Assembly (NCBI GenBank): GCA_011525845.1
Contig: WYBP01000021.1
Coordinates: forward strand, 1-50,018
Direction: 5' to 3'
Length of the DNA stretch: 50,018 nucleotides
Source: Gemmatimonadaceae bacterium
Lineage (GTDB): Bacteria; Gemmatimonadota; Gemmatimonadetes; Gemmatimonadales; Gemmatimonadaceae
Of the stretch, positions 36,104 through 48,812 are shown piece by piece (the stretch's first letter is position 1; every line of letters starts with the position of its first letter). The notes under the pieces are model-generated. The model was not told where the DNA came from and made no database searches. It saw only the letters and a program-made list of their open reading frames with translations. Position numbers and translations under genes: made by a program.

Positions 36104-36529
36104 TCAGCACCGCCTGTAGACGGTCCACGACAACGGATTCCTCGGACGCACATCGCACCATTCGACGCGCCCCCGTCGCAGAAAGAAGTGGCTGCGACAG
36201 CCTGTCCGGCGCCAGACCGATGGCGTCAGCGACACGGTGCCGCCGGCGTGCAGGGTCAGCCGCCAGCGCGGACGTCCGTTGGGATGAAGGCTGATCTGCA
36301 GCAGTTCGCCGCAGCCGCAGGGGCAGATCAGCGCGGCAAACCAGACATGCACACCCTCGCCCACGAGGTACACCGTCCACGGGTCGAGGAAGTCCGGCAA
36401 CTCCGCCGCGAAGCGCGTCGCTCGCGCGGGCGCCGCGCGCAGGATGCGGGCCCTCCACCACAGTTCGACGGCGAACCGCGCCGCGCACAGAATGCTGTCG
36501 GCCGGGCGACGCCAACCGACACGCGTCAC
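36104..36529 (-). CDS. DUF6527-family protein, last gene of the ubiquitin-like operon
   Basis: A 141-residue protein starting at GTG 36529, which overlaps the stop of the E1 gene as GTGA. The C-terminal ~85 residues match what I know as DUF6527: LPDFLDPWTVYLVGEGVHVWFAALICPCGCGE, then LHPNGRPRWRLTLHAGGTVSLTPSVWR and a final Cys in RVEWC. The CPCGC cluster with the late Cys could bind a metal. DUF6527 proteins are often encoded beside bacterial E1/E2/multiubiquitin genes; their biochemical role is not known to me. It could be a target-recognition or ligase-like accessory factor, which is speculation. Confidence 0.75.
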   Translation of the reverse strand: MTRVGWRRPADSILCAARFAVELWWRARILRAAPARATRFAAELPDFLDPWTVYLVGEGVHVWFAALICPCGCGELLQISLHPNGRPRWRLTLHAGGTVSLTPSVWRRTGCRSHFFLRRGRVEWCDVRPRNPLSWTVYRRC

Positions 36530-38049
36530 GGGGCGGTGCCCGGCTCCGTCAGCTCGGGCATGTTGAGCAGCGGACGAAGGTCTCCTCTCCCTGCGAGCAG
36601 CGAGAGTGCGGGGCACGGCATGCCATCGCTGTCAATCAGCAGCCGGGCCTGCGTGAGGCTCATGCTGAAGCTCGCGAAGTCGCCGTTACCATCATCCCGG
36701 AAGCCGTGGAGCCGCGCGAGGAGCTCGATGACTGCGAGGCTGGCGTAGAGGGTGTTCACGCTGATGACCGCGGGCCGGTCCTCCTGCACGCCGGAGATGT
36801 ACTTCTCGCTCCGCAGCGCTTCGTACTGTGCGGGGTCCTCCCGGCGCGTGGCCGCGGCGCGCACGTCCTCGGCGGTGTAGGCGCTCCGGCTGAGCAGACT
36901 GGAGCCGTCGGGCTGGAGGTAATGCACGGTGCCGCAGATCTGGTCCACGCTTCCCAGTCCATCCGCGACGAGGCGAACGCCCACGTCGAAGTACGGCACG
37001 CTGTAGAAGCAGGCCACGCGGTTCAGCAGGTCGCGTCCGTCGATCGAGTCCATGCATCCGAACACCGCGTCGCACCGTGCCACGTGACGGACCACATTCG
37101 CCGAGAAGAGGTCCTTCGCCATCGGTTTGACGATCGTGCCGAGGCCCATCGCCTTCACGGCGCCCGCGAGCACGTCGACCTTGTACTCCCCCGCGACCGC
37201 GTCGGCCATCGTCGCGTTGTAGATGCGATTCAGGTTCTTCTCCTCGACGCGGTCGGGGTCGACCAGGACGAGGACGCCGACACCGAGCCGTGCCAGCATC
37301 TCGATCGTCGGGCTCCCGGTGCCCGAGCAGCCGACGACGGCGACCGTCATTCGGGAGAGCAGCGTCGTCGTACCGGCGCCGAGCGCCTGCGCCGTGCGCC
37401 GCGCGAACTCGGAGACGCTGTGGCGGTCCTTGAACGGGCCGGTACCTTTGGACTGCGCGTTCGACTCCACGACCTCGGTCCACCGCCAGCTCCTGATCTC
37501 CTCTCCGACGACCGCGACCTTCGGGACCGGGGCCGTCGCGCCATCGGGGCTGACTGCCCGGGCGAAGATCCGGCCCTCCGGCAGCATGACCGCGCTGGTG
37601 TGCGGTCGGTCGTTGTCGAGCCACGCGCCGACGGCGGCGAACAGCTCGTGATCCGCGCGGTCATCCACACTCGAGAACCGGCGAAGTCCACCGGGATGAC
37701 TGTGGATCTTGAGAAGGCTCAGGCCACTCTTCTGTGCCAGATCGAGCAGCGCTGGCAGGGCGTCGGTCGGCCAGCGCACGCGCTCGGGCGTCCGCTCGAG
37801 GCAGCGCTCGTGCGGCACCAGCTCGATCTTGTAGATCGTGAGGATCTCGCCGTCTTCGCCATCAGATTCCGGGGCGGCCGGAGGCGCCGCGAGTCGGCCG
37901 CAAAGCGCGAGGGCAATCGACTCGCGTCCGTCTCCGGGGAAGAGGTGCTGGCGGAGGTGCGCGTGCTGCCTGCCCGTCATCCTGAGCGCGGCGAACGGGC
38001 GGGGCGAACGGTAGGCATCCACCGCGGCGATGGCAGTTGTCTCGGTCAT
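36526..38049 (-). CDS. JAB deubiquitinase-like domain fused to E1-like (ThiF) adenylyltransferase
   Basis: A 507-residue fusion. Residues ~20-190 are a JAB/MPN metallopeptidase-like domain with the JAMM motif HSHPGGLRRFSSVDD (His116, His118, Ser126, Asp129), which in eukaryotes and bacteria trims ubiquitin-like tails or removes conjugates. Residues ~230-480 are an E1/ThiF domain: VVGCSGTGSPTIEMLARLGVG with Gly240, LVDPDRVEEKNLNRIYNAT, and DAVFGCMDSIDGRDLLNRVA. In the crossover-loop region where MoeB/ThiF enzymes have Cys the sequence is LQPDGSSLLSRSAY, Ser-rich without Cys. It starts one base after the E2-like stop, behind GGAGGGG. Confidence 0.9.
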   Translation of the reverse strand: MTETTAIAAVDAYRSPRPFAALRMTGRQHAHLRQHLFPGDGRESIALALCGRLAAPPAAPESDGEDGEILTIYKIELVPHERCLERTPERVRWPTDALPALLDLAQKSGLSLLKIHSHPGGLRRFSSVDDRADHELFAAVGAWLDNDRPHTSAVMLPEGRIFARAVSPDGATAPVPKVAVVGEEIRSWRWTEVVESNAQSKGTGPFKDRHSVSEFARRTAQALGAGTTTLLSRMTVAVVGCSGTGSPTIEMLARLGVGVLVLVDPDRVEEKNLNRIYNATMADAVAGEYKVDVLAGAVKAMGLGTIVKPMAKDLFSANVVRHVARCDAVFGCMDSIDGRDLLNRVACFYSVPYFDVGVRLVADGLGSVDQICGTVHYLQPDGSSLLSRSAYTAEDVRAAATRREDPAQYEALRSEKYISGVQEDRPAVISVNTLYASLAVIELLARLHGFRDDGNGDFASFSMSLTQARLLIDSDGMPCPALSLLAGRGDLRPLLNMPELTEPGTAP

Positions 38050-38050
38050 G

Positions 38051-38479
38051 TCAGCCCCTCCGGAACTCGCGCGCGAACCACTCGTCGACGAGGGCGAGGT
38101 GCGCCGCCACGTCGTCGATCCCAGGACGCCAGGGGTTGGCGCTGGTCCGATGGCGGGACCACCGCTGGAACGTCTTGCCGTCGATCGCCATCGCCGTGAG
38201 CGCACCGATAACTCGACCGTCGCTGGCGGCGAGCGGCGGGTGCACATAGACCATATCGAGCGCCGCGGTCGGGTACCCCGCGGTGATCTGAATCGCCAGG
38301 GTCACCCTAGGTTGGTCGTAGCCGCTCGGGACCGGGAACTCGTTCACGAAAAGCCAGCGCCCACCCTGGGAGACGATCGTCTCCCAGAGCAGGCTGCGGG
38401 CGTCGAGGTGCACTTCGTCCTCCTCCGGCAGCGCGAACTGTCGGCGCAGCGCTGGAACGGTGGTCGCCGGCGCCGTCAC
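38051..38479 (-). CDS. E2-like ubiquitin-conjugating protein (prokaryotic E2 family E type), no cysteine
   Basis: About 142 residues. The core reads WLFVNEFPVPSGYDQPRVTL, AIQITAGYPTAALDMVYVHPPL and GKTFQRWSRHRTSANPWRPGIDD, the pattern I associate with the bacterial E2/UBC family linked to multiubiquitin operons. The protein has no Cys; where an E2 active site would be expected the sequence is Trp107-Ser108-Arg109-His110, so a serine may replace the usual thiol. The start at GTG 38479 overlaps the multiubiquitin stop (GTGA) and has GGAG six bases upstream; a GTG at 38497 is an alternative. The operon order is Ub-like, E2, E1-JAB, DUF6527. Confidence 0.82.
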   Translation of the reverse strand: MTAPATTVPALRRQFALPEEDEVHLDARSLLWETIVSQGGRWLFVNEFPVPSGYDQPRVTLAIQITAGYPTAALDMVYVHPPLAASDGRVIGALTAMAIDGKTFQRWSRHRTSANPWRPGIDDVAAHLALVDEWFAREFRRG

Positions 38480-38832
38480 CACTGGCTCCGGCCGCACGCG
38501 TCGGCCCGCGCTAGATCCGTGGCCCCCTCGGTCTGGTCGAGGGGCAGGGTCATGAACCGCTCGACGCCCGTCGTCGTCAGATCGACCACCTGATTCAGCT
38601 CGATCTTCGCGGTGCGGCCGCCGATCAGCTTCTGATCGAGCCGGTAGCGCTCCGGCGGTGTCTTCCCGGCCCGCGTGAGGATCTCGCGGCCCGTGATCGT
38701 GGAGGTCTCGACCACGATGTGGGTCTTATCCACGCGGATCCGGTACTGCTGTCCCGCCGGCGGGGTGCGCCCCGACTTGGCGTAGGTCTCGACGTCGATG
38801 GTTTCGACGCCCGCGTTCATGTGCGTGTCCAT
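38476..38832 (-). CDS. Multiubiquitin-domain protein (ubiquitin-like modifier)
   Basis: A 118-residue protein with one ubiquitin-like beta-grasp domain: YRIRVDKTHIVVETSTITGREIL, RAGKTPPERYRLDQKL and VDLTTTGVERFMTLP, matching the Multiubiquitin (PF14452-type) family. Only one domain copy is present although the family name refers to tandem copies. After the domain there is a 25-residue tail without a Gly-Gly end, which the JAB domain downstream may process. An in-frame ATG at 38820 is an alternative start. It is the first gene of the operon, and a GTAACGC-type motif lies 65 bases upstream. Confidence 0.85.
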   Translation of the reverse strand: MDTHMNAGVETIDVETYAKSGRTPPAGQQYRIRVDKTHIVVETSTITGREILTRAGKTPPERYRLDQKLIGGRTAKIELNQVVDLTTTGVERFMTLPLDQTEGATDLARADACGRSQW

Positions 38833-38896
38833 CTCTCGATACTCCGGTCTAGGGTGGTAGCGGGCGAAGGTTGTGGTCGCCCTGTCTCTCGCCGTA

Positions 38897-38916
38897 CCAT
38901 TCCGGAATGCGTTACA
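38897..38916 (-). promoter_or_regulatory. GTAACGC-type motif (copy D) upstream of the ubiquitin-like operon
   Basis: On the minus strand the sequence is TGTAACGCATTCCGGAATGG. It matches the copies before the sigma and HTH genes at TGTAACGC and at the C-GAA/GAATGG part with the same spacing. It lies 65 bases before the multiubiquitin ATG. The centre CATTCCGGAATG is a perfect palindrome. Confidence 0.55.
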
Positions 38917-38964
38917 GCACGGGGGCTCCGACTCCCGCACCCAGCGGGACCTGGCGCATCGGGC

Positions 38965-38984
38965 TGTGACGCCCAACCGAATGG
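38965..38984 (+). promoter_or_regulatory. GTAACGC-type motif (copy A) upstream of the sigma gene
   Basis: TGTGACGCCCAACCGAATGG. One base departs from GTAAC. It overlaps an inverted repeat CCCAACC-GAAT-GGTTGGG (38972-38989), with a 7-bp perfect stem, so it could also be a protein-binding palindrome or RNA hairpin. Confidence 0.5.
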
Positions 38985-39023
38985 TTGGGTGGACCCCCGA
39001 CAGGCGCCTCGGTGGCCGGGGGC

Positions 39024-39043
39024 TGTAACGCCTCGGCGAATGT
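39024..39043 (+). promoter_or_regulatory. GTAACGC-type motif (copy B) upstream of the sigma gene
   Basis: TGTAACGCCTCGGCGAATGT, 80 bases before the sigma-factor ATG and 40 bases after copy A. Same orientation as the gene it precedes. Confidence 0.55.
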
Positions 39044-39122
39044 GACAGTGTCCGACGCCACCGCGCCGCCGAGGCCCGGTCAGGCGCACCCAAAACCGTG
39101 CAAGACATACGAGCGCACATGA

Positions 39123-39809
39123 ATGTGGTCCCCAACGCCACCGCCTGAGTTCTTCGATCTGGTCCAGCAGGGCGACCGCCGATCGACTGCCGAGTTCGTG
39201 GACCGGTACACGCCGGTCGCGCTGGCGTATCTGCGGGTGAGCTTCGCGCGCATGAGCGAAGCGGAGCACGACGAGCTCGTGCAGGACGTTCTCCTCGAGG
39301 TCATCTCCAATCTCCGGAAGTACGACCGCACGAGGCCATTCAAGGCTTGGTTTCTCACGATCACCAAGCGGCGGGCGCTCGATTTCATGGAGCGCCACGC
39401 TGGGGAGTGGGTGCAGGGAGAGTCTGGTCTGGTCCCCACACACGTCTCCTACGAAGCGGCGATGGACGAGGATGGGCCCGAGGCGCTGCAAACGCAGATC
39501 CGAGAGGCAACAGCTACAGACGCGGCCTTGGGTGTTGACGCGGGGGGAGAGGAGGGTGGGGCCGATGCGCAAGCGCCGGTCGGCTCGCTGACCTCACGGG
39601 TGCCCGCGCTGCTTGACTGGATGGCATCGCTGAGCCCGGAGGATCGCGTGCTGCTGGATCGCTACAGGCTCGTTGCGTCGTGGGAGGAGGTAGCGGAGCG
39701 GCTTACCCGCCTCGGCGACCCCGTGTCGCCCGGAACCGCGAGGGTTCGGGGGCACCGCCTAATCGCGCGCGCCAAGAGGGTCTTGGCCGGCGGCTCAGGC
39801 GACGGCTGA
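39123..39809 (+). CDS. ECF-type RNA polymerase sigma factor
   Basis: A 228-residue sigma-70-family protein. Region 2 spans about residues 20-100: VDRYTPVALAYLRVSF, EHDELVQDVLLEVISNLRKYDRTRPFKAWFLTITKRRALDFM. An acidic variable linker (~110-150) follows, then region 4 (~160-225): LSPEDRVLLDRYRLVASWEEVAERLTRLG and TARVRGHRLIARAKRVL. No obvious anti-sigma gene of the usual membrane type follows; the next gene is a soluble HTH protein. Because two copies of the GTAACGC motif precede it, it may transcribe its own gene and the flanking operons. Confidence 0.85.
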   Translation: MWSPTPPPEFFDLVQQGDRRSTAEFVDRYTPVALAYLRVSFARMSEAEHDELVQDVLLEVISNLRKYDRTRPFKAWFLTITKRRALDFMERHAGEWVQGESGLVPTHVSYEAAMDEDGPEALQTQIREATATDAALGVDAGGEEGGADAQAPVGSLTSRVPALLDWMASLSPEDRVLLDRYRLVASWEEVAERLTRLGDPVSPGTARVRGHRLIARAKRVLAGGSGDG

Positions 39810-39823
39810 GTGGGACGTCGGGG

Positions 39824-39843
39824 CGTAACGCCCACCCGAACGC
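39824..39843 (+). promoter_or_regulatory. GTAACGC-type motif (copy C) upstream of the HTH gene
   Basis: CGTAACGCCCACCCGAACGC, between the sigma gene stop and the HTH gene ATG (85 bases before it). A second partial block, CAAACGAATAGC, follows 28 bases downstream. Confidence 0.5.
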
Positions 39844-39927
39844 GTAGATACCCAAACGAATAGCTCCGACCCGTGGACGGAAACTCCGTCACAATGAGCA
39901 CGGCACTCGAACACGAGAGCGCATACG

Positions 39928-40728
39928 ATGATGAAGGATCGGAAGGACCCCGGGACGGGGGAGAAGCAGGACGAGAGGGCCGAGCAGGTCGCCCACAGGG
40001 CCGAGGCATCCGTCAACGACGCGGACAACGCCGGGGCGCACGACGCCGGGAGTCGGAGCGACACAGATCGTAGGGTCGAGGGGCTGCTTCGGATCATCGG
40101 GTTGCAAGACGGCAACGATCGTGAGCTAACGGAAGAGGAGGCAGAGCTGATCTTTGACCTCGCGGAGGCGGAACCAGTCTCCGAGGAGCGGCTCGCCCGC
40201 ATCCGAGAGGGCGTCCTCCGGCGGCGGTTCGGGACGACGCCGGTTGCAACTGAATCCTCGACCGAGGCATCGCCTGTCGTCGCGTCGTCTATCGCCGAGG
40301 CGCAGGTGGCTAGCGTGAAGGCTCCGTCTGAGCCCGCGTCGGTGCGGCCGAGCCTCGTGCGCCACTGCAGTTCGCTCAATCTCAGGCTAGCCGACGTCGC
40401 CACGGAGCTGCACTTAGACTCGCAGACGCTCTTCGAGCTGGATCGCGGTGCCGCCCGAGAGGTGCCACGGGCGCTGATCGCTGCGGCTGCCGCGACGCTC
40501 AGGATAGACCGTGGTGAAGTGGCGCGCTGCCTGGCCCCGGGTCATAGAGACGTGCCGCGGATGGCCGCACATGGCCGACGTGGGGCCAAAGTCGCCGAGC
40601 CAGCCACTCTACGCGACTTCCTCGAGATCATCGAGGCCAGCAAGCTGGGTGAAGAAGTCAAGCGGCACTGGCGTCAGGTGGTCGCCGCCGAGAGTGAAAG
40701 CATCGCACAAGCGCCCGAGCAGTCCTGA
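39928..40728 (+). CDS. Putative XRE-like HTH regulatory protein
   Basis: A 266-residue soluble protein. Residues 1-50 are charged and disordered-looking. Residues ~60-95 form an acidic helical segment (GLQDGNDRELTEEEAELIFDLAEAEPVSEERLARIREGVL). Residues ~145-205 resemble a Cro/C1-type helix-turn-helix: CSSLNLRLADVATELHLDSQTLFELDRG, AREVPRALIAAAAATLRIDR. The C-terminal ~50 residues are helical. No family is recognised with certainty. It sits between the sigma gene and the ImmA-helicase gene, so it could be an anti-sigma-like or ImmR-like repressor whose level is controlled by the adjacent metallopeptidase domain. Confidence 0.6.
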   Translation: MMKDRKDPGTGEKQDERAEQVAHRAEASVNDADNAGAHDAGSRSDTDRRVEGLLRIIGLQDGNDRELTEEEAELIFDLAEAEPVSEERLARIREGVLRRRFGTTPVATESSTEASPVVASSIAEAQVASVKAPSEPASVRPSLVRHCSSLNLRLADVATELHLDSQTLFELDRGAAREVPRALIAAAAATLRIDRGEVARCLAPGHRDVPRMAAHGRRGAKVAEPATLRDFLEIIEASKLGEEVKRHWRQVVAAESESIAQAPEQS

Positions 40729-40753
40729 TCCATCTTCACGCGGACAAGAGATT

Positions 40754-43700
40754 GTGAGCTCCGTTCTTCATACTCCCGCCGCCATTCGAGCAGCTGCTCG
40801 TCGCGCCCGCGCTGCCGCGACCGCTCGGGTTGGTGTCGGCAAGGGGGCTGAGTCGCTCGACGCCGTCATCGAAGCCGCGATTGAGCTGGCCGACCTCAAT
40901 GTCATCTCGTGCGCGCCGGGGTCGGACCTCCTGCAAGGTGCTCGTGGCAGGTTCGATGGTCTCCGGCGCGTCATTGTCCTCGACGAGACCCTCACCGACG
41001 AGGAGCGACGCTTCACACTCGCTCATGAGCTCGGGCACACGATGCTCGACCTCATCGACCCTGAATGCGGTGGGGTGGATCTAAACGGGCCGATCCTCGA
41101 CGTCTTTCCACTCGGCGAGCAGTACGTCACTGGCTACGGTCCGCGACAGCAGGTGGAGATCAACGCCAGCCTGTTCGCTGCGGAGTTCGTGTCCCCACTT
41201 GAGCTGGTCCGTTCGGAGTTCCTGAGTGGGCGATCGGCCTCGGACATCGCTGAGGCGCTAGGCGTCTCGACATCGGTAATCTACGGCCAGCTCACCGCCG
41301 CATTTCTCAGCGCGGAGGGCGTGCGCACAGCAACTGCGCCCGACCAACACGACAACGACGCCCCGCCGGTCGGACACGCGCCACAGTCGTTCGATCTCGA
41401 CCCCCGTCAGCAGGAAGCTCGGGATGCGAATCCCGGACCGACTGCGGTCTCGGCGGGTCCAGGCACCGGCAAGACGCGGACGCTGACCGAGCGCGTGGTG
41501 CACCTGATCCGAAACCGACAGGCGCTACCCGAGGGCATCCTCTGCCTGACCTTCTCGAACATGGCGGCCGCCGAGCTTCGTGAGCGCTGCGAGCGCGCGC
41601 TGGGGCCAGCTGCGCGTCAGGTTCGGGTGCAGACCTTCCACGCGTTCGGGCTGGATCGGCTCCGCGACTACCCAGACCAGGCCGGCGTTCGCAACGATGT
41701 GACACTGCTTGATCGGCTCGACGCCGAGGATCTGCTCGACCGACATCTCACGCAGCTCAAACTCGTCGAGTACCGCCACATCGGCGACCCCGGTTTCTAT
41801 CTTCCATCGATCCTCGACGCGATCTCCGCGGCGAAGGACGAGATGGTGGGCCCGGATCGCTACATGGAGCTCGCGCGCGCCACTGCCGCGTCCGCGCAGA
41901 GTGGCGATGACAAGGCCCAGAAGGCGGCGCGCCGGCATGTGGAGGTGGCACACGTCTACGCCAAGTACGAGACCCTCCTGCAGCAGCACGGCGCTGTAGA
42001 CTTCGGGGACCTAATCTATCGCGTGGTGCGCCTGTTCGAGTCTCATCCGGAGGTGGCCACCGAGGTCTCCGACGGCTACCCGCAGATCCTGGTCGACGAG
42101 TATCAGGACGTGAACCGCGCGTCGGCCCGGCTGCTCCAGCTGCTTCGTCCGAGTGGCCAAGGGCTCTGGGTCGTCGGCGACGTCCGGCAGGCCATCTACG
42201 CCTTTCGTGGAGCGTCGGCGCGAAACCTCTCCGACTTCGCCCAGGACTTCCCCGCTGCCGGGGAGCCGGTACCGCTCGTACGGAACTACCGATCGGCGCC
42301 GGAACTGCTTCGACTCTTCAGTTCCGCAGCGAAGGAGATGCGGGGCGCGGAGAGTTTCTCCGCTTGGGAAGCAAGTCGCTCAGGGGCTACAGGCCGCGCG
42401 GTCTTCGGCACCGCCGACGACGAGGAGGCAGAACTCTCGGCGATCGTGGATTGGATCAACCACTCGGTCGCGGCAGGGCGACCGTTTGGTGCGCACGCCG
42501 TGCTCTGTCACCGGAATGCGGATGTGCCGCTCGTCGCGCGCGCGCTTGAGCAGCGCGGCGTCCCGGTTGCGAACTTCGGCGACTTCTTTGAACGCGACGA
42601 GGTACTCGACCTGCTCTCGCTCCTCTCGTACGTCGTCGAGTGGGGAGCGACCGCACTTCCGCGCGTTCGTACGTGCGGTCCGCACACCCTTAGCGACGCC
42701 GACTTTCAGGCGCTCCTCGCCGCAGCGCTTCGCGCCCACGGCGGGCTCCCCGCCGTCCTGAACGCCGCGACTCCACCCGACGGCATGACGGAGGACGCGT
42801 TTCGCCGTTCATCGACCGATTGGCGCATGCTCTCGAGCTTCGCGTGTCGCCACGAGGTGTGGTCGTTCTTTGCGGGCTACCTGTTCGACGACGGGCGCTT
42901 CCTCCGCCACATCGTCGCGACGGATACGGCCCACGCTCGCGCACAGCAGCTCGCCATCGGGCAGCTTCTGCTCATGGCGCGGGCATTTGATGCACGAGAG
43001 CAGAAGGTCGTTCCTGCGATGGAGGTCGGGGGAGCGACGGCAGACGCCGTGGACTTCCTGAGGAGCGAGTCACAAGTTGCCAATAGCCTCGCGCGTAAGC
43101 GATCCTTCCTCAGCTTCATGCGCCGGCTCTGGGCAGCGCGTGATCGCCGCGTGCCGGTGCCGGCCAGCGCACTCGACGCGGTGCACGTCGGCACCGTGCA
43201 TGGCGCGAAGGGGCTCGAGTTTCCCGTTGTGTTCCTCCCCTTCCTGGTCGAGGGTCGATTCCCCTTCAAGGCGCCGCACGATCACGCCCCTCCCCCGTCA
43301 GGGATGCTGCCCCATGATCCGGTCGCGGAGGACGCCGAGCTCGAGGCGTTGTTCTTCGTTGCGATGACTCGCGCTCGAGACGAACTGGTGATAAGCCACG
43401 CCATCAGCTACACGGGCAAGCCACCGAAGCTCTCGCGGCTGCTTCGACTCATCGCACCGGCCCGGGAGCAGGCATGGTTCGAGGAGCAACACTGGCCGTC
43501 ATCGACTGCGGGCGCCAGCGCGACAGAGCCGGCGAGCGAGCCGCGTGAGGTGACTTCTCTTCGGTATAGCGAGTTCGAGACCTTCATCAAGTGCCCTCGC
43601 CGGTTCTACTACCGGCACGTGCTCAACCTGCCGGAGCCCGACAGCGGGAGCGCCTATCTCCGGTACCACAGTGTGTCTCGCGAGATGATTGAGTGGATGG

Positions 43701-44281
43701 ACGAGGCACATCGCGCTAGTGCCATGCCGAGAGAGTGGTCGGTCGTGCAGGACCATTTTTCTGAACGCTGGCAGACGCGTGGTCCTGTCGATCATGTGCA
43801 CGAGGCATTCTATCGGGAGGTGGCGATCGAGAACGTGCGCCAAGCGTGGGAGCGTCGCCTAGGAATGGCGCCGGCGGCCGAGTGGGACCAGGCTCCCATG
43901 GGGCTGGTGTCCACCGCAATCGAAGGCGTGACCATAAGCATCCCGGTGAGCATCAGTCGGGACGAGGGCGGTGTCGTGCGCCTCGGACATGGGTACTTCC
44001 GACCCCGGAAGGCGACGACGGATCACCTTGAGCATCGTTTCGCGCTGCTTAGACATGCAACGGCGGCCGCCACCCCAGGGCGCACCGTTCAGGTAGAGGC
44101 GCACTACCCGGAAGAGGTGGTGGCGCTGAACGCGCTCCGAAGGGACGCGGAGCAGCGGCGGATCGACGACGTGCGTGAGGCGGTCCAGAGTATCCGCGCC
44201 GGCCGGTTCCCAGCCGAGCCGAGTGAGGACCGCGACCGGGAGTGTCCTCGCTGCCCGTACGGCACCATCTGCCCGAGGTAG
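40754..44281 (+). CDS. ImmA/IrrE metallopeptidase - UvrD/Rep helicase - Fe-S PD-(D/E)XK nuclease fusion
   Basis: A 1175-residue protein with three activities in one frame. (1) Residues ~10-190: an ImmA/IrrE-type zinc peptidase with LAHELGHTMLD (His91, Glu92, His95), followed by the IrrE-like segment EINASLFAAEFVSPLELV. (2) Residues ~215-880: a superfamily 1A helicase with Walker A AGPGTGKTRT (Lys240), Walker B VDEYQDVN (Asp448, Glu449), VVGDVRQAIYAFRGA, VGTVHGAKGLEFPVV and VAMTRARDEL. (3) Residues ~935-1175: a nuclease with RYSEFETFIKCPRRFYY and a four-Cys cluster (Cys947, Cys1164, Cys1167, Cys1173) spaced as in AddB/Cas4. GTG 40754 follows the HTH gene by 25 bases; an upstream open frame overlaps that gene and is ignored. 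Confidence 0.9.
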   Translation: MSSVLHTPAAIRAAARRARAAATARVGVGKGAESLDAVIEAAIELADLNVISCAPGSDLLQGARGRFDGLRRVIVLDETLTDEERRFTLAHELGHTMLDLIDPECGGVDLNGPILDVFPLGEQYVTGYGPRQQVEINASLFAAEFVSPLELVRSEFLSGRSASDIAEALGVSTSVIYGQLTAAFLSAEGVRTATAPDQHDNDAPPVGHAPQSFDLDPRQQEARDANPGPTAVSAGPGTGKTRTLTERVVHLIRNRQALPEGILCLTFSNMAAAELRERCERALGPAARQVRVQTFHAFGLDRLRDYPDQAGVRNDVTLLDRLDAEDLLDRHLTQLKLVEYRHIGDPGFYLPSILDAISAAKDEMVGPDRYMELARATAASAQSGDDKAQKAARRHVEVAHVYAKYETLLQQHGAVDFGDLIYRVVRLFESHPEVATEVSDGYPQILVDEYQDVNRASARLLQLLRPSGQGLWVVGDVRQAIYAFRGASARNLSDFAQDFPAAGEPVPLVRNYRSAPELLRLFSSAAKEMRGAESFSAWEASRSGATGRAVFGTADDEEAELSAIVDWINHSVAAGRPFGAHAVLCHRNADVPLVARALEQRGVPVANFGDFFERDEVLDLLSLLSYVVEWGATALPRVRTCGPHTLSDADFQALLAAALRAHGGLPAVLNAATPPDGMTEDAFRRSSTDWRMLSSFACRHEVWSFFAGYLFDDGRFLRHIVATDTAHARAQQLAIGQLLLMARAFDAREQKVVPAMEVGGATADAVDFLRSESQVANSLARKRSFLSFMRRLWAARDRRVPVPASALDAVHVGTVHGAKGLEFPVVFLPFLVEGRFPFKAPHDHAPPPSGMLPHDPVAEDAELEALFFVAMTRARDELVISHAISYTGKPPKLSRLLRLIAPAREQAWFEEQHWPSSTAGASATEPASEPREVTSLRYSEFETFIKCPRRFYYRHVLNLPEPDSGSAYLRYHSVSREMIEWMDEAHRASAMPREWSVVQDHFSERWQTRGPVDHVHEAFYREVAIENVRQAWERRLGMAPAAEWDQAPMGLVSTAIEGVTISIPVSISRDEGGVVRLGHGYFRPRKATTDHLEHRFALLRHATAAATPGRTVQVEAHYPEEVVALNALRRDAEQRRIDDVREAVQSIRAGRFPAEPSEDRDRECPRCPYGTICPR

Positions 44282-44669
44282 GAGGCCCGCGTACCGCGTG
44301 CGCGCATTAGCAACTGGAAGTCAGCCGAGGCTGCAGGGGACGACCGCTCAGCGACATGACCCGGCCGAGCATCGTCCCAGAAGGTGACTGCGCGGGTTAG
44401 GAGACGGCGTAACGGGATGCCGAGAAAGTCGGTGTCCGCGGGCGTATTGGGGATTGCTACCGGTTTGTCCCTTGATGCACGGCGGAAACGTTCTGCGGAG
44501 AAGCCTCACGGTCCTATTTGGCGGCGTCAGCGCCGTTGTTTGGGCGCGCGAAAGTGCCGCGGGCCTGGGGTCAGGCCGGCATGAGATGCTGCAGCCTCAC
44601 CGGGATATACGCGGCGCGCGCGAAGGTCACGATCTCGTCGACAAGCGACGAGTGATGCTTCACTCTTTG
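44282..44669. other. Intergenic stretch with a possible truncated minus-strand gene
   Basis: About 390 bases between the helicase stop and the left end of the IS3-family element. On the minus strand, right at the IS end, a frame reads RVKHHSSLVDEIVTFARAAY, continues IPVRLQHLMPA and stops at about 44578. It has protein-like composition but no start before the element, so it may be the 3' remnant of an interrupted gene. I do not recognise it. Copy E of the GTAACGC motif also lies here. Confidence 0.4.
44408..44427 (+). promoter_or_regulatory. Weak fifth GTAACGC-type motif (copy E)
   Basis: CGTAACGGGATGCCGAGAAA keeps GTAACG and CCGA at the same spacing as copies A-D but differs elsewhere. It lies 127 bases after the helicase gene and before the insertion sequence, with no obvious gene directly after it, so it may be a chance match or the promoter of a gene lost to the insertion. 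Confidence 0.25.
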
Positions 44670-44752
44670 TGAGGGTCCCCCCGCCGCTCCCTCCAGTTGA
44701 TGCTTGACTCCTGGGCCCCACCGGTCGTCTTCGAGGCGACCAAGGAGCTCAG

Positions 44753-45019
44753 ATGAAGAAAGCCCGATTCACGACGGAGCAGATCATCGCGATCCTGCAG
44801 GAGCATGCGGCCGGCGCCGCCCCCGCGGAGTTGGTGCGGCGCCACGGGATCTCGCGCCAGACGTTCTACAGCTGGAAGAAACGCTACGGCGACCTCCAGG
44901 TGAGCGACGCCAAGCGGCTCAAAGCGTTGGAGGATGAGAACGCACGGCTGAAACGGCTTGTCTCCGAGCAAGCGCTCAATCTCCAGATCCTGAAGGACGT
45001 GTTGGGAAAGCACTCGTGA
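44753..45019 (+). CDS. IS3-family transposase OrfA
   Basis: An 88-residue protein with the IS3 OrfA helix-turn-helix: MKKARFTTEQIIAILQEHAA, GISRQTFYSWKKRYGDLQVSD, followed by the leucine-zipper-like LKALEDENARLKRLVSEQAL. It binds the element ends and is needed for OrfAB formation. The stop overlaps the orfB start region (GTGA at 45016), where programmed frameshifting normally makes the full transposase. Confidence 0.95.
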   Translation: MKKARFTTEQIIAILQEHAAGAAPAELVRRHGISRQTFYSWKKRYGDLQVSDAKRLKALEDENARLKRLVSEQALNLQILKDVLGKHS

Positions 45020-45858
45020 CTACCGGCGAGCGCCGGGCGGTGGTCACCGATGTGCGGGGGCGCTACGAGATCAGTGAACGCTTTGCTTGCCGCGCGCTCG
45101 GGTTCGAGCGTTCGGTGATGCGGTTCGTGCCGCAACGACCGGTCGTGGACGCTCCGCTGCGCGAGAAGCTCTGCGCGCTGGCCGCCGAGCATCTGCGCTG
45201 GGGCATTCCGCGTCTGCACTGGCGCCTCCGACGGGACGGCTGGCTCGTGAACTACAAGCGCGTCGAGCGCGTCTATCGCCTTGAGGGACTGGCGGTCCGG
45301 CGCCACAAGCGGAAGCGGCTCGCGGTGCCGCGGGTCCCCCGTCCGATCGCCGTGAGCCCAAACGACACCTGGAGCCTCGACTTCGTCAGTGACCAGCTCA
45401 GCTCCGGGCGGCGATTCCGGTGCCTCACCCTGATCGACAGCTGCACCCGGGAGTGCCTCGCCATTTCGGTGGCGTACAGTCTGCCGAGGACCGCCGTGAT
45501 CGTGGCGCTCGACGCGATTCTCGGCGTCCGCGGGCGGCCGACGCGGTTGTCGCTCGACAATGGCAACGAGTTCCGCAGTCGCGTGTTCGACGCGTGGGCC
45601 GCTGATCGCGGCATCACCTTGCAGTTCATTCAGCCCGGCAAGCCCGAACAGAACGCGCACGTCGAGAGCTTCAACGGGACGTTCCGCGATGAATGGCTCA
45701 ACCAGCACTGGTTTCACGCGCTGCTCGATGCCCAGTTCCACATCGAGCGCTTCCGCCGCGACTTCAACAGGGCCCGTCCGCACGAGGCCTGCCGCCCCTT
45801 GACCCCGCACGAGTACGCCCAGACCTTCACCACACCACTCGCCCAGCTTTCAGCCTAG
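45016..45858 (+). CDS. IS3-family transposase OrfB (DDE integrase)
   Basis: A 280-residue rve-type DDE transposase. N-terminal ALGFERSVMRF and HLRWGIPRLHWRLRRDGWLVNYKRVERVYR are the HTH_21-like part; the catalytic core shows Asp in WSLDFVSD, Asp in LSLDNGNEF and Glu in HVESFNGTFRDEWL, with the IS3 spacing. Length is normal and no frameshift or stop interrupts it. It starts at GTG overlapping the orfA end. Confidence 0.95.
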   Translation: MTTGERRAVVTDVRGRYEISERFACRALGFERSVMRFVPQRPVVDAPLREKLCALAAEHLRWGIPRLHWRLRRDGWLVNYKRVERVYRLEGLAVRRHKRKRLAVPRVPRPIAVSPNDTWSLDFVSDQLSSGRRFRCLTLIDSCTRECLAISVAYSLPRTAVIVALDAILGVRGRPTRLSLDNGNEFRSRVFDAWAADRGITLQFIQPGKPEQNAHVESFNGTFRDEWLNQHWFHALLDAQFHIERFRRDFNRARPHEACRPLTPHEYAQTFTTPLAQLSA

Positions 45859-45886
45859 AACTGGAGGAGTGGCGGGGGGACCCTCA

Positions 45887-46010
45887 CGACCGCTTCTGCT
45901 GCAGCCGCTCCAACTAGAAGGGTTGGGCGGGGCGTCCGCAACCAACTCATGCCATCACGGACGCCTCGCCCAACCCAATCCGCACCTGCGGCTGTCGGCA
46001 GCAAGCGTCG
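45887..46010. repeat. attC-like repeat 3 between the IS and the first cassette-like gene
   Basis: On the plus strand it ends with GGCTGTCGGCAGCAAGCGTC (45989-46008), related to the blocks of the other two repeats, and begins with a degenerate counterpart CGACCGCTTCTGCTGCAGCC. Between lies a long stem (GGTTGGGCG-GGGCGTCCG against CGGACGCCTCGCCCAACC, about 45918-45977). It starts right at the 3' side of the gene ending at 46011, as an attC follows its cassette gene; the IS right end abuts it. Confidence 0.5.
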
Positions 46011-47927: not shown

Positions 47928-48812
47928 CTACTCGTTTGACTTCTCGTCGCGAGGCCAGGTTTCGAGCACCTTCTTCCGGTACCGTTCGACTCCCTCCATG
48001 TGGGCAGAACGGCGTTTCGCCAAGCGACTTGAGAAGGACCACCCAGGAATGAGCTCAGAAAGGGTCAAGTCCTCGTGTGGGTCCAAGCCGTCATGACACG
48101 TTTGACAGATCGTCAGCAGATTGGCCTCCTCCGTGAGTCCGCCCCGAGACCACATCCGTACGTGATGCAAGTGAAGCTTCACGTGAACATTGTCTGCGGG
48201 TCGCTCGCCGCAGATGCGGCAACTGTAGTGGTCACGCTTCAGGATGCTCATCCTAAGCTTTCGCGACGGTGCACGCTGCCGCTCGGCTTCCGAGATGGTT
48301 GAGAGTCCGCGAAATCCGATGGGGCCAGCAGAAACAGAGGGATGCGGTGCAAGCACGTCTGGCAACCACTGCTCCGCCAACTTGCGCTCGATCACGGCGT
48401 GGCCACCGCGCGACATGAAGATGGCCAGTCCTCGATCGTCGTTGACTACCAGACACTCCTCTCCGAGCTTCTCGTAGTTCGCCAGGAGCCTGTCAGCATG
48501 AACTATTGATGCAGCCCGCAGTTCTATGCGCCGCTCAGGGTCCTCGTAGCCTTCGAAGTGTGAATATACGCCCCACTCGACATGTCCGGCGATGGTCAAA
48601 GTCAAGGAAACGGAGTAGTACTCCCTGTCTGCGTGGACGGTGCGCAACTGTACCGCCAACGCGGCAAGGTTGCCGGCTCGGTCGCTTGTCGGTGCGCTCA
48701 ACTGAGTTCCGTCAGTGGTGGTCGTGCGTCTAGCGAGTACTGGACAGTTCTCTCTAATTGCACCAAGCACCGCAAGGGAATCTGCCGTCGCCCAATACTC
48801 ACCGGCGCTCAC
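47928..48812 (-). CDS. HNH endonuclease-domain protein
   Basis: A 294-residue protein with a C-terminal HNH motif (~residues 195-255): CRICGERPADNVHVKLHLHHVRMW, SRGGLTEEANLLTICQTCHDGLDP, with two CxxC pairs for structural zinc and the catalytic His-His. The N-terminal ~190 residues (HADREYYSVSLTLTIAGHVE, AIFMSRGGHAVIERKLAEQW) are not recognised and may sense or bind a target. HNH proteins of this type occur in restriction and defence contexts. Start GTG 48812. It is the most upstream gene of the minus-strand cassette-like series and ends just before attC-like repeat 1. Confidence 0.8.
   Translation of the reverse strand: MSAGEYWATADSLAVLGAIRENCPVLARRTTTTDGTQLSAPTSDRAGNLAALAVQLRTVHADREYYSVSLTLTIAGHVEWGVYSHFEGYEDPERRIELRAASIVHADRLLANYEKLGEECLVVNDDRGLAIFMSRGGHAVIERKLAEQWLPDVLAPHPSVSAGPIGFRGLSTISEAERQRAPSRKLRMSILKRDHYSCRICGERPADNVHVKLHLHHVRMWSRGGLTEEANLLTICQTCHDGLDPHEDLTLSELIPGWSFSSRLAKRRSAHMEGVERYRKKVLETWPRDEKSNE

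What the first reader, a model, noticed from the sequence alone, without database searches (positions are those of the whole stretch)
38897..39843. A shared 20-bp motif in front of both divergent arms of the defence-like locus
Four copies of (T/C)GT(A/G)ACGC-N(4-5)-C-GAA occur within 1 kb: 38897-38916 (minus, facing the ubiquitin-like operon), 38965-38984 and 39024-39043 (facing the sigma gene), 39824-39843 (facing the HTH gene). Each points toward the gene it precedes, at 65-85 bases from the start for three of them. A weaker copy is at 44408. GTAAC resembles ECF -35 elements. This ties the ubiquitin-like operon to the sigma/HTH/helicase genes as one regulon.
Basis: partly seen in the sequence, partly recalled or inferred. 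Interest (0 to 1): 0.72.

Follow-up and report, generated by a model that had tools for sequence, protein, structure and literature searches.

The report
Dedicated sigma-factor promoters of ubiquitin-like operon
Four copies of the same short DNA signal sit in front of every transcription unit of a bacterial ubiquitin-like gene cluster, and related clusters in other bacteria show that they are most likely on-switches read by the cluster's own sigma factor, so the conjugation genes and their regulators are probably turned on together.

Summary
All four copies have one fixed spacing, GTRACG-N7-GAA. In the 3.58-Mb genome GTRACGC-N6-GAA occurs 10 times, 4 of them in this 1 kb. The only orthologous locus found in the phylum (Gemmatimonadota, another genus) has the same divergent gene order, with eight copies facing its sigma gene, six of them 43-46 bp apart, and one facing its ubiquitin-like gene. 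A matrix built from that locus alone picks exactly the four window sites plus the copy at 44408 as the top five of 50 kb.

The gene set is widespread and mobile. Sigma, small HTH-like protein and M78-peptidase/UvrD-helicase/nuclease fusion lie beside multiubiquitin/E2/E1-JAB ("Bub") genes in Abditibacteriota, Pseudomonadota and Cyanobacteria. There the motif has other letters (T[TA]CCG-N16-18-CGATT[AG]) but the same logic: one copy 76-93 bp upstream of the ubiquitin-like gene, a second in front of sigma or inside the 3' end of sigma ahead of HTH-helicase.

Best reading: promoters of a dedicated ECF-type sigma factor. The -10 box in the window, the sigma-DNA contact and the trigger are not shown. 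It is a new variant of known immune-operon controllers (CapH+CapP, CapW, CapK+CapS).

The parts
38895..38916 (-). Motif copy facing the ubiquitin-like operon (TGTAACGCATTCCGGAATGGTA); G of GTAACG lies 83 bp from ATG 38832; possible -10 CGAG after N18
38965..38986 (+). Distal motif copy facing sigma (TGTGACGCCCAACCGAATGGTT)
39024..39045 (+). Proximal motif copy facing sigma (TGTAACGCCTCGGCGAATGTGA), 98 bp from the sigma start
39824..39845 (+). Motif copy in the sigma-HTH gap (CGTAACGCCCACCCGAACGCGT), 103 bp from the HTH start
44408..44429 (+). Weaker fifth copy (CGTAACGGGATGCCGAGAAAGT) 127 bp after the helicase stop; second best in the window with the orthologue-only matrix; no gene evident between it and an IS3 element
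39123..39809 (+). ECF-type sigma-70 family sigma factor, 228 aa
   Evidence: TIGR02937 47.3 bits over its cut-off 42.9; Sigma70_r2 2e-10
39928..40728 (+). Small HTH-like regulator, 266 aa; family conserved between sigma and helicase; HTH assignment weak
   Evidence: AlphaFold2 model unusable
40511..44281 (+). M78 (ImmA/IrrE) peptidase - UvrD helicase - PD-(D/E)XK nuclease fusion; true start probably near 40.75 kb, after the HTH gene
   Evidence: orthologue alignment
38476..38832 (-). Multiubiquitin-domain ubiquitin-like protein; likely start ATG 38832 or 38820
   Evidence: Multi_ubiq 4e-13
38051..38497 (-). E2 family E protein
   Evidence: Prok-E2_E 2.4e-35
36526..38058 (-). JAB peptidase - ThiF-type E1 fusion
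   Evidence: ThiF 1.2e-28, Prok-JAB 3.9e-06; 62% identical to the orthologue

Best explanation
The repeats are promoter elements (-35 region GTAACG, plus a conserved GAA inside what would be the spacer) recognised by the locus's own ECF-type sigma factor. The sigma factor transcribes itself, the HTH/helicase genes and the divergent ubiquitin-like conjugation operon, forming a closed, locus-restricted, positively autoregulated regulon. Shown here: the motif, its directionality, its conservation, its confinement to the locus, and the same paired-promoter logic in related loci of other phyla. Inferred: that the sigma factor is the protein that reads it. Inferred at lower confidence: the HTH-like protein holds the system off, and the M78 domain of the helicase fusion inactivates it when DNA damage or phage DNA processing produces single-stranded DNA, as CapP/CapH and PprI/DdrO do.
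For: (1) Four fixed-spacing copies in 1 kb, 10 genome-wide. (2) The orthologous locus in another genus has 8 copies facing sigma and 1 facing Ubl; matrices trained on one locus recover the sites of the other. (3) All 13 copies point toward the gene they precede, and the copy nearest each start codon lies 66-103 bp upstream, a promoter-like distance. (4) 11 of 12 aligned locus sigma proteins match the ECF model TIGR02937. (5) In 15 of 18 loci from Pseudomonadota and one cyanobacterium the Ubl gene is preceded by T[TA]CCG or CTTCCG-N16-18-CGAT[TC][AG], a normal -35/-10 geometry. It lies 76-93 bp from the Ubl start in 14; in the 15th an IS gene follows. A leave-one-out matrix finds it as best, tied-best or second hit of about 11 kb, and in 14 of these 15 its partner lies either 87-90 bp upstream of sigma (4 loci) or inside the sigma 3' end, mostly 210-216 bp before HTH (10 loci). 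(6) The internal copy is constrained at nucleotide level: the codon before TAC CGN encodes N, G, T, D, Y, F or A but always ends in T (10/10), and the Ala/Thr/Ser codon just before ATT/ATC is always NCG. (7) In 16 loci a sigma promoter resembles its own Ubl promoter more than those of other loci, 0 of 20,000 permutations as good. (8) GTAAC is a published ECF16 -35 element.
Against: No clear -10 box in the window: only a weak YGNN at N18 after GTAACG, CGAG at both Ubl-facing sites. The strongest second element, GAA, lies 7 bp after GTAACG, too close for a normal -10. The regular 43-46 bp spacing of six of the eight array copies is unusual for promoters and fits a binding-site array as well. No shared motif was found in the Abditibacteriota and Bacteroidota loci, nor this motif in four other Gemmatimonadota E1 loci. 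Only one true orthologous locus exists in the searched genomes. Many of the comparison loci are related, so counts overstate independence; of the 16 loci in the pairing test about half carry the signal. No expression or binding data.
Confidence: 0.7

Rival explanations
1. The motif is an operator for the HTH-like protein (a CapH/DdrO-type repressor or activator). M78 cleavage of that protein relieves repression of all units, and the sigma factor acts elsewhere or downstream.
For: M78 proteins with HTH partners control neighbouring immune operons (PMC13373217; PMC10904395). Simpler Ubl loci have an XRE-type regulator plus M78 and no sigma. Six array copies at 43-46 bp in G029 suggest cooperative binding on one DNA face. 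GTAACG and GAA are about one helical turn apart.
Against: The motif is not palindromic and is always oriented toward the gene. In other phyla the equivalent element has two boxes 16-18 bp apart, typical of promoters. DNA-binding evidence for the HTH-like protein is weak.
Confidence: 0.13
2. The sites are read by both proteins: sigma at GTAACG and a -10, with the HTH-like protein contacting the GAA element in the spacer as repressor or co-activator.
For: Two conserved blocks in one fixed arrangement in all 13 sites, a weak extra YG at N18, and co-conserved sigma and HTH-like genes in every examined M78-helicase locus.
Against: No direct evidence. The proteobacterial motif shows no obvious third block.
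Confidence: 0.15
3. Chance or non-regulatory repeats (e.g. transposon ends, iterons).
For: An IS3 element lies nearby (44669-45887).
Against: Cross-locus recovery, orientation and position relative to start codons, and absence of the tandem pattern from all but one of the other phylum genomes apart from the orthologue.
Confidence: 0.02

Closest known systems
CapH+CapP controllers of CBASS and Bub operons (with PprI/IrrE-DdrO)
   Same: M78 peptidase encoded with a putative HTH protein beside an operon of ubiquitin-like conjugation genes; likely induction by DNA damage or ssDNA (PMC13373217, PMC10904395)
   Different: Here the M78 domain is fused to a UvrD helicase/PD-(D/E)XK nuclease and a sigma factor is added; control appears positive, through dedicated promoters; ssDNA response not tested
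CapK+CapS and CapW controllers of Bub operons
   Same: Locus-encoded regulators of the same kind of operon
   Different: Kinase/STAS or WYL proteins; no sigma factor (PMC13373217)
ECF16 sigma factors (Caulobacter SigF, Bradyrhizobium EcfF)
   Same: -35 element GTAAC(C/G/A), autoregulated (PMC3420878)
   Different: Spacer to CGAA is 14-16 bp there but 6-7 bp here; ECF16 membership of the protein not tested
Multiubiquitin / E2 family E / JAB-E1 operons (Pfam Multi_ubiq, Prok-E2_E; 'Bub' in recent papers)
   Same: Domain content of the minus-strand operon
   Different: The regulatory arm is a type not mentioned in the paper that could be read (PMC13373217)

Membership tests
ECF (group IV) sigma-70 factors | Match to the ECF model spanning regions 2 and 4 | tested here: met
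   TIGR02937 47.3 bits against cut-off 42.9, residues 23-219; 11 of 12 locus sigmas match
ECF (group IV) sigma-70 factors | Autoregulated promoter with conserved -35 and -10 at 16-18 bp | tested here: inconclusive
   Window: -35-like GTAACG clear, -10 unclear. Pseudomonadota and Leptolyngbya relatives: two boxes at 16-18 bp
ECF16 subgroup | tGTAACc-N16-CGAA promoter | tested here: not met
   GAA is at N7 after GTAACG in all sites
Multiubiquitin/E2/E1 (Bub-type) operon | Ubiquitin-like protein, E2 and E1 genes together with a JAB domain | tested here: met
   Multi_ubiq, Prok-E2_E, Prok-JAB and ThiF matches. The published Bub definition itself could not be read
CapH+CapP | M78/CapP-type peptidase next to an HTH repressor and an immune operon | tested here: inconclusive
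   M78 present but fused to a helicase; HTH assignment of the partner weak
CapH+CapP | ssDNA-activated cleavage of the HTH repressor | not testable with these tools
   needs biochemistry
Anti-phage defence system | Protection against phage | not testable with these tools
   PADLOC models match only single proteins (GajB-like helicase, E1-E2), not the locus as a whole; Bub operons have not been shown to protect against phage (PMC13373217)

The most novel reading that the evidence does not exclude
A new class of mobile immune or stress switch: a helicase-nuclease with a built-in M78 protease senses processed DNA, cleaves an HTH anti-sigma or repressor, and frees a dedicated sigma factor that fires ubiquitin-like conjugation genes through locus-specific promoters, one of them hidden inside the sigma gene's own coding sequence in many loci, and with a multi-copy promoter/operator array in at least one Gemmatimonadota locus.
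Probability: 0.4. Interest if true: 0.78.

Novelty: new variant of a known kind. Interest (0 to 1): 0.6.

Why it matters
Bacterial ubiquitin-like operons were known to be controlled by repressors (CapW, CapH+CapP, CapK+CapS). Here the control appears to be positive, by a sigma factor dedicated to one locus, and the arrangement recurs on plasmids of at least three other phyla. It gives ready targets (the GTAACG-N7-GAA and TTACCG-N17-CGATT sites) to test when these conjugation systems switch on, and a link from DNA processing by a helicase-protease to ubiquitin-like modification.

Tried and rejected
Scans that found nothing or nothing close: the HTH-like pair (A2) and the sigma pair (A1) in viral contigs; the E1 pair in viral contigs gave only distant ThiF-like matches; window sigma and HTH-like protein in plasmids; E1 in phages. 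AlphaFold2 of the HTH-like protein was unusable, mean pLDDT 42, so no fold search was run. Shared motif in the divergent gaps of Abditibacteriota and Pontibacter loci: none above chance. This motif in other Gemmatimonadota E1 loci (G272, G107, G314, G121): no convincing hit; two of these contigs end near the operon. Reading GTAACG-N7-GAA as a complete -35/-10 pair was rejected because the spacing is far too short. Reading the internal proteobacterial copy as mere protein conservation was rejected because wobble positions are fixed while the preceding amino acid varies. Transposon-end or iteron reading rejected (see rivals). Papers on sigma-controlled Bub operons: none found; Gong 2025 not held.

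Full report
WHAT WAS CHECKED. The four copies exist as described. Aligned properly they share one fixed arrangement, GTRACGC-N6-GAA. In the whole genome (25 contigs, 3.58 Mb, the window being all of contig C19) the pattern occurs 10 times, 4 in this 1 kb, with 6 matches for the reversed-pattern control. GTAACG-N7-GAA occurs 5 times, 3 of them here, control 1. Outside the locus the motif is therefore at background level.

ORTHOLOGOUS LOCUS. The sigma protein has one close relative among 395 genomes of the phylum; all 179 held genomes of the family were also searched (46% identity, 44% in the alignment). It lies in G029, named in public records as Gemmatimonadetes bacterium 2013_60CM_65_52. The locus has the same layout: M78-UvrD helicase, HTH-like gene and sigma on one strand, the multiubiquitin gene and JAB-E1 diverging. 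Its intergenic region holds eight copies of the motif facing sigma, six of them 43-46 bp apart, and one copy facing the ubiquitin-like gene. The tandem-pair pattern occurs in only one other of the 395 genomes. A matrix from the nine G029 sites gives the four window sites and 44408 as the top five positions of the window (scores 13.9-20.2, next 8.8; 0.29 expected per 50 kb at 13.8 or more). The reverse test also works, with weaker separation. Of the 13 core sites, all show GT, AC and GA, with A at the third base in 12, G after the AAC in 12, and the last A of GAA in 12.

THE GENE SET IS CONSERVED. The window proteins are an ECF-type sigma (TIGR02937 above cut-off), a 266-aa HTH-like protein with no family match above threshold, an M78 peptidase/UvrD helicase/PD-(D/E)XK nuclease fusion, and multiubiquitin, E2 family E and JAB-ThiF proteins. 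Searching plasmid records with the E1, and with M78-helicases from two other loci, led to 21 M78-helicase loci that I read. In all of them the helicase gene follows the same two-gene set, with one sigma gene cut short next to an IS256 element (L089). Ubiquitin-like/E1 genes are adjacent in all but one, where an IS66 element follows the helicase (L074). They include Abditibacteriota (L054, divergent like the window), Alpha-, Beta- and Gammaproteobacteria, and the cyanobacterium Leptolyngbya. 11 of 12 aligned sigma proteins match the ECF model. Simpler ubiquitin-like loci carry an XRE-type regulator and M78 without sigma.

THE SAME PROMOTER LOGIC IN OTHER PHYLA. In 15 of 18 such loci the gap before the ubiquitin-like gene contains T[TA]CCG or CTTCCG, then 16-18 bp, then CGAT[TC][AG]; in 14 of them it lies 76-93 bp before the start codon. 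A leave-one-out matrix finds this site as best, tied-best or second hit in loci of about 11 kb. In 14 of the 15 it has a high-scoring partner: 87-90 bp upstream of sigma in four loci, and inside the 3' end of the sigma gene, 210-216 bp before the HTH-like gene (248 in one), in ten. At the internal site the codon before TAC CGN (TTC CGG in one) encodes N, G, T, D, Y, F or A yet always ends in T, and the Ala, Thr or Ser codon is always NCG. The product of third-position T frequencies is 8e-7, not a formal p-value because some loci are close relatives. Across 16 loci, sigma promoters resemble their own Ubl promoter more than others (19.8 against 17.9 matches in 32, 0 of 20,000 permutations as high); the signal comes from about half of them. 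In Robbsia the divergent gap shows a significant similarity between the two outward strands, partly because it is palindromic. No shared motif was seen in the Abditibacteriota and Bacteroidota gaps.

MECHANISM. The simplest account is that each locus encodes a sigma factor that reads its own promoters. In the window these precede sigma, HTH/helicase and the divergent conjugation operon. GTAAC(G) is a published -35 of ECF16 sigmas (tGTAACc-N16-CGAA; EcfF GTAAC(g,a)-N14-15-(c,t)CG(t,a); PMC3420878). What does not fit neatly is the conserved GAA 7 bp after GTAACG and the lack of a clear -10. Both Ubl-facing sites have CGAG at N18, and most sites have Y there, but this is weak. GAA may be contacted by the HTH-like protein. 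What turns the system on is inference: M78 peptidases CapP and PprI are activated by single-stranded DNA and cleave HTH repressors (PMC13373217; PMC10904395). Here the M78 domain is fused to a helicase-nuclease that would itself handle such DNA.

COMPARISON. [quoted passage not shown] That paper does not mention ECF sigma factors, and no other paper on a sigma-controlled Bub operon was found in the library, though the defining paper could not be read. The same source says Bub operons have not been shown to protect against phage, so 'defence-like' should stay tentative.

VERDICT. Observation confirmed. Regulon interpretation supported by comparative evidence. Identity of the reader protein likely but unproven; trigger inferred. 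New variant of a known kind.

Noticed in passing
window 44669-45887: IS3-type insertion element (two transposase ORFs, 22-bp inverted repeats, 95% complementary) 240 bp after the fifth motif copy; whatever the 44408 site once drove may have been displaced or lost.
   Followed up: partly
L043 15011-15413 (G029): Eight directly repeated copies of the motif in front of sigma, the six distal ones 43-46 bp apart; the reason for the regular spacing is unexplained.
   Followed up: partly
L086-L088, L091-L095, L074, L075 (3' end of the sigma gene): A promoter-like element embedded in coding sequence with fixed wobble bases, about 213 bp before the next gene; could also yield a transcript for a region-4 fragment of the sigma factor.
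   Followed up: partly
L074 7279-7800: Pseudomonas koreensis plasmid keeps sigma, HTH-like, helicase and the Ubl promoter motif, but an IS66 element follows where the Ubl operon would be.
   Followed up: no
L089 1844-3416: Sphingorhabdus plasmid locus with an IS256 element next to a shortened sigma ORF.
   Followed up: no
L062 10720-12174: Gemmatimonadota genome G272 has an E1-JAB relative with one in-frame TAG reported by the search, near an XRE-type gene instead of sigma.
   Followed up: no
L065 4122-7022: Genome G121: multiubiquitin operon diverging from RHH-like, unknown, HTH-like and M78-like genes, another controller arrangement without sigma.
   Followed up: no
L090 2663-2811: Robbsia divergent gap contains nested palindromes (e.g. 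TTTAGAGT-AAAC-ACTCTAAA), possibly an XRE operator plus mirrored promoters.
   Followed up: partly
window 47928-48812: HNH endonuclease gene on the minus strand beyond the IS element.
   Followed up: no
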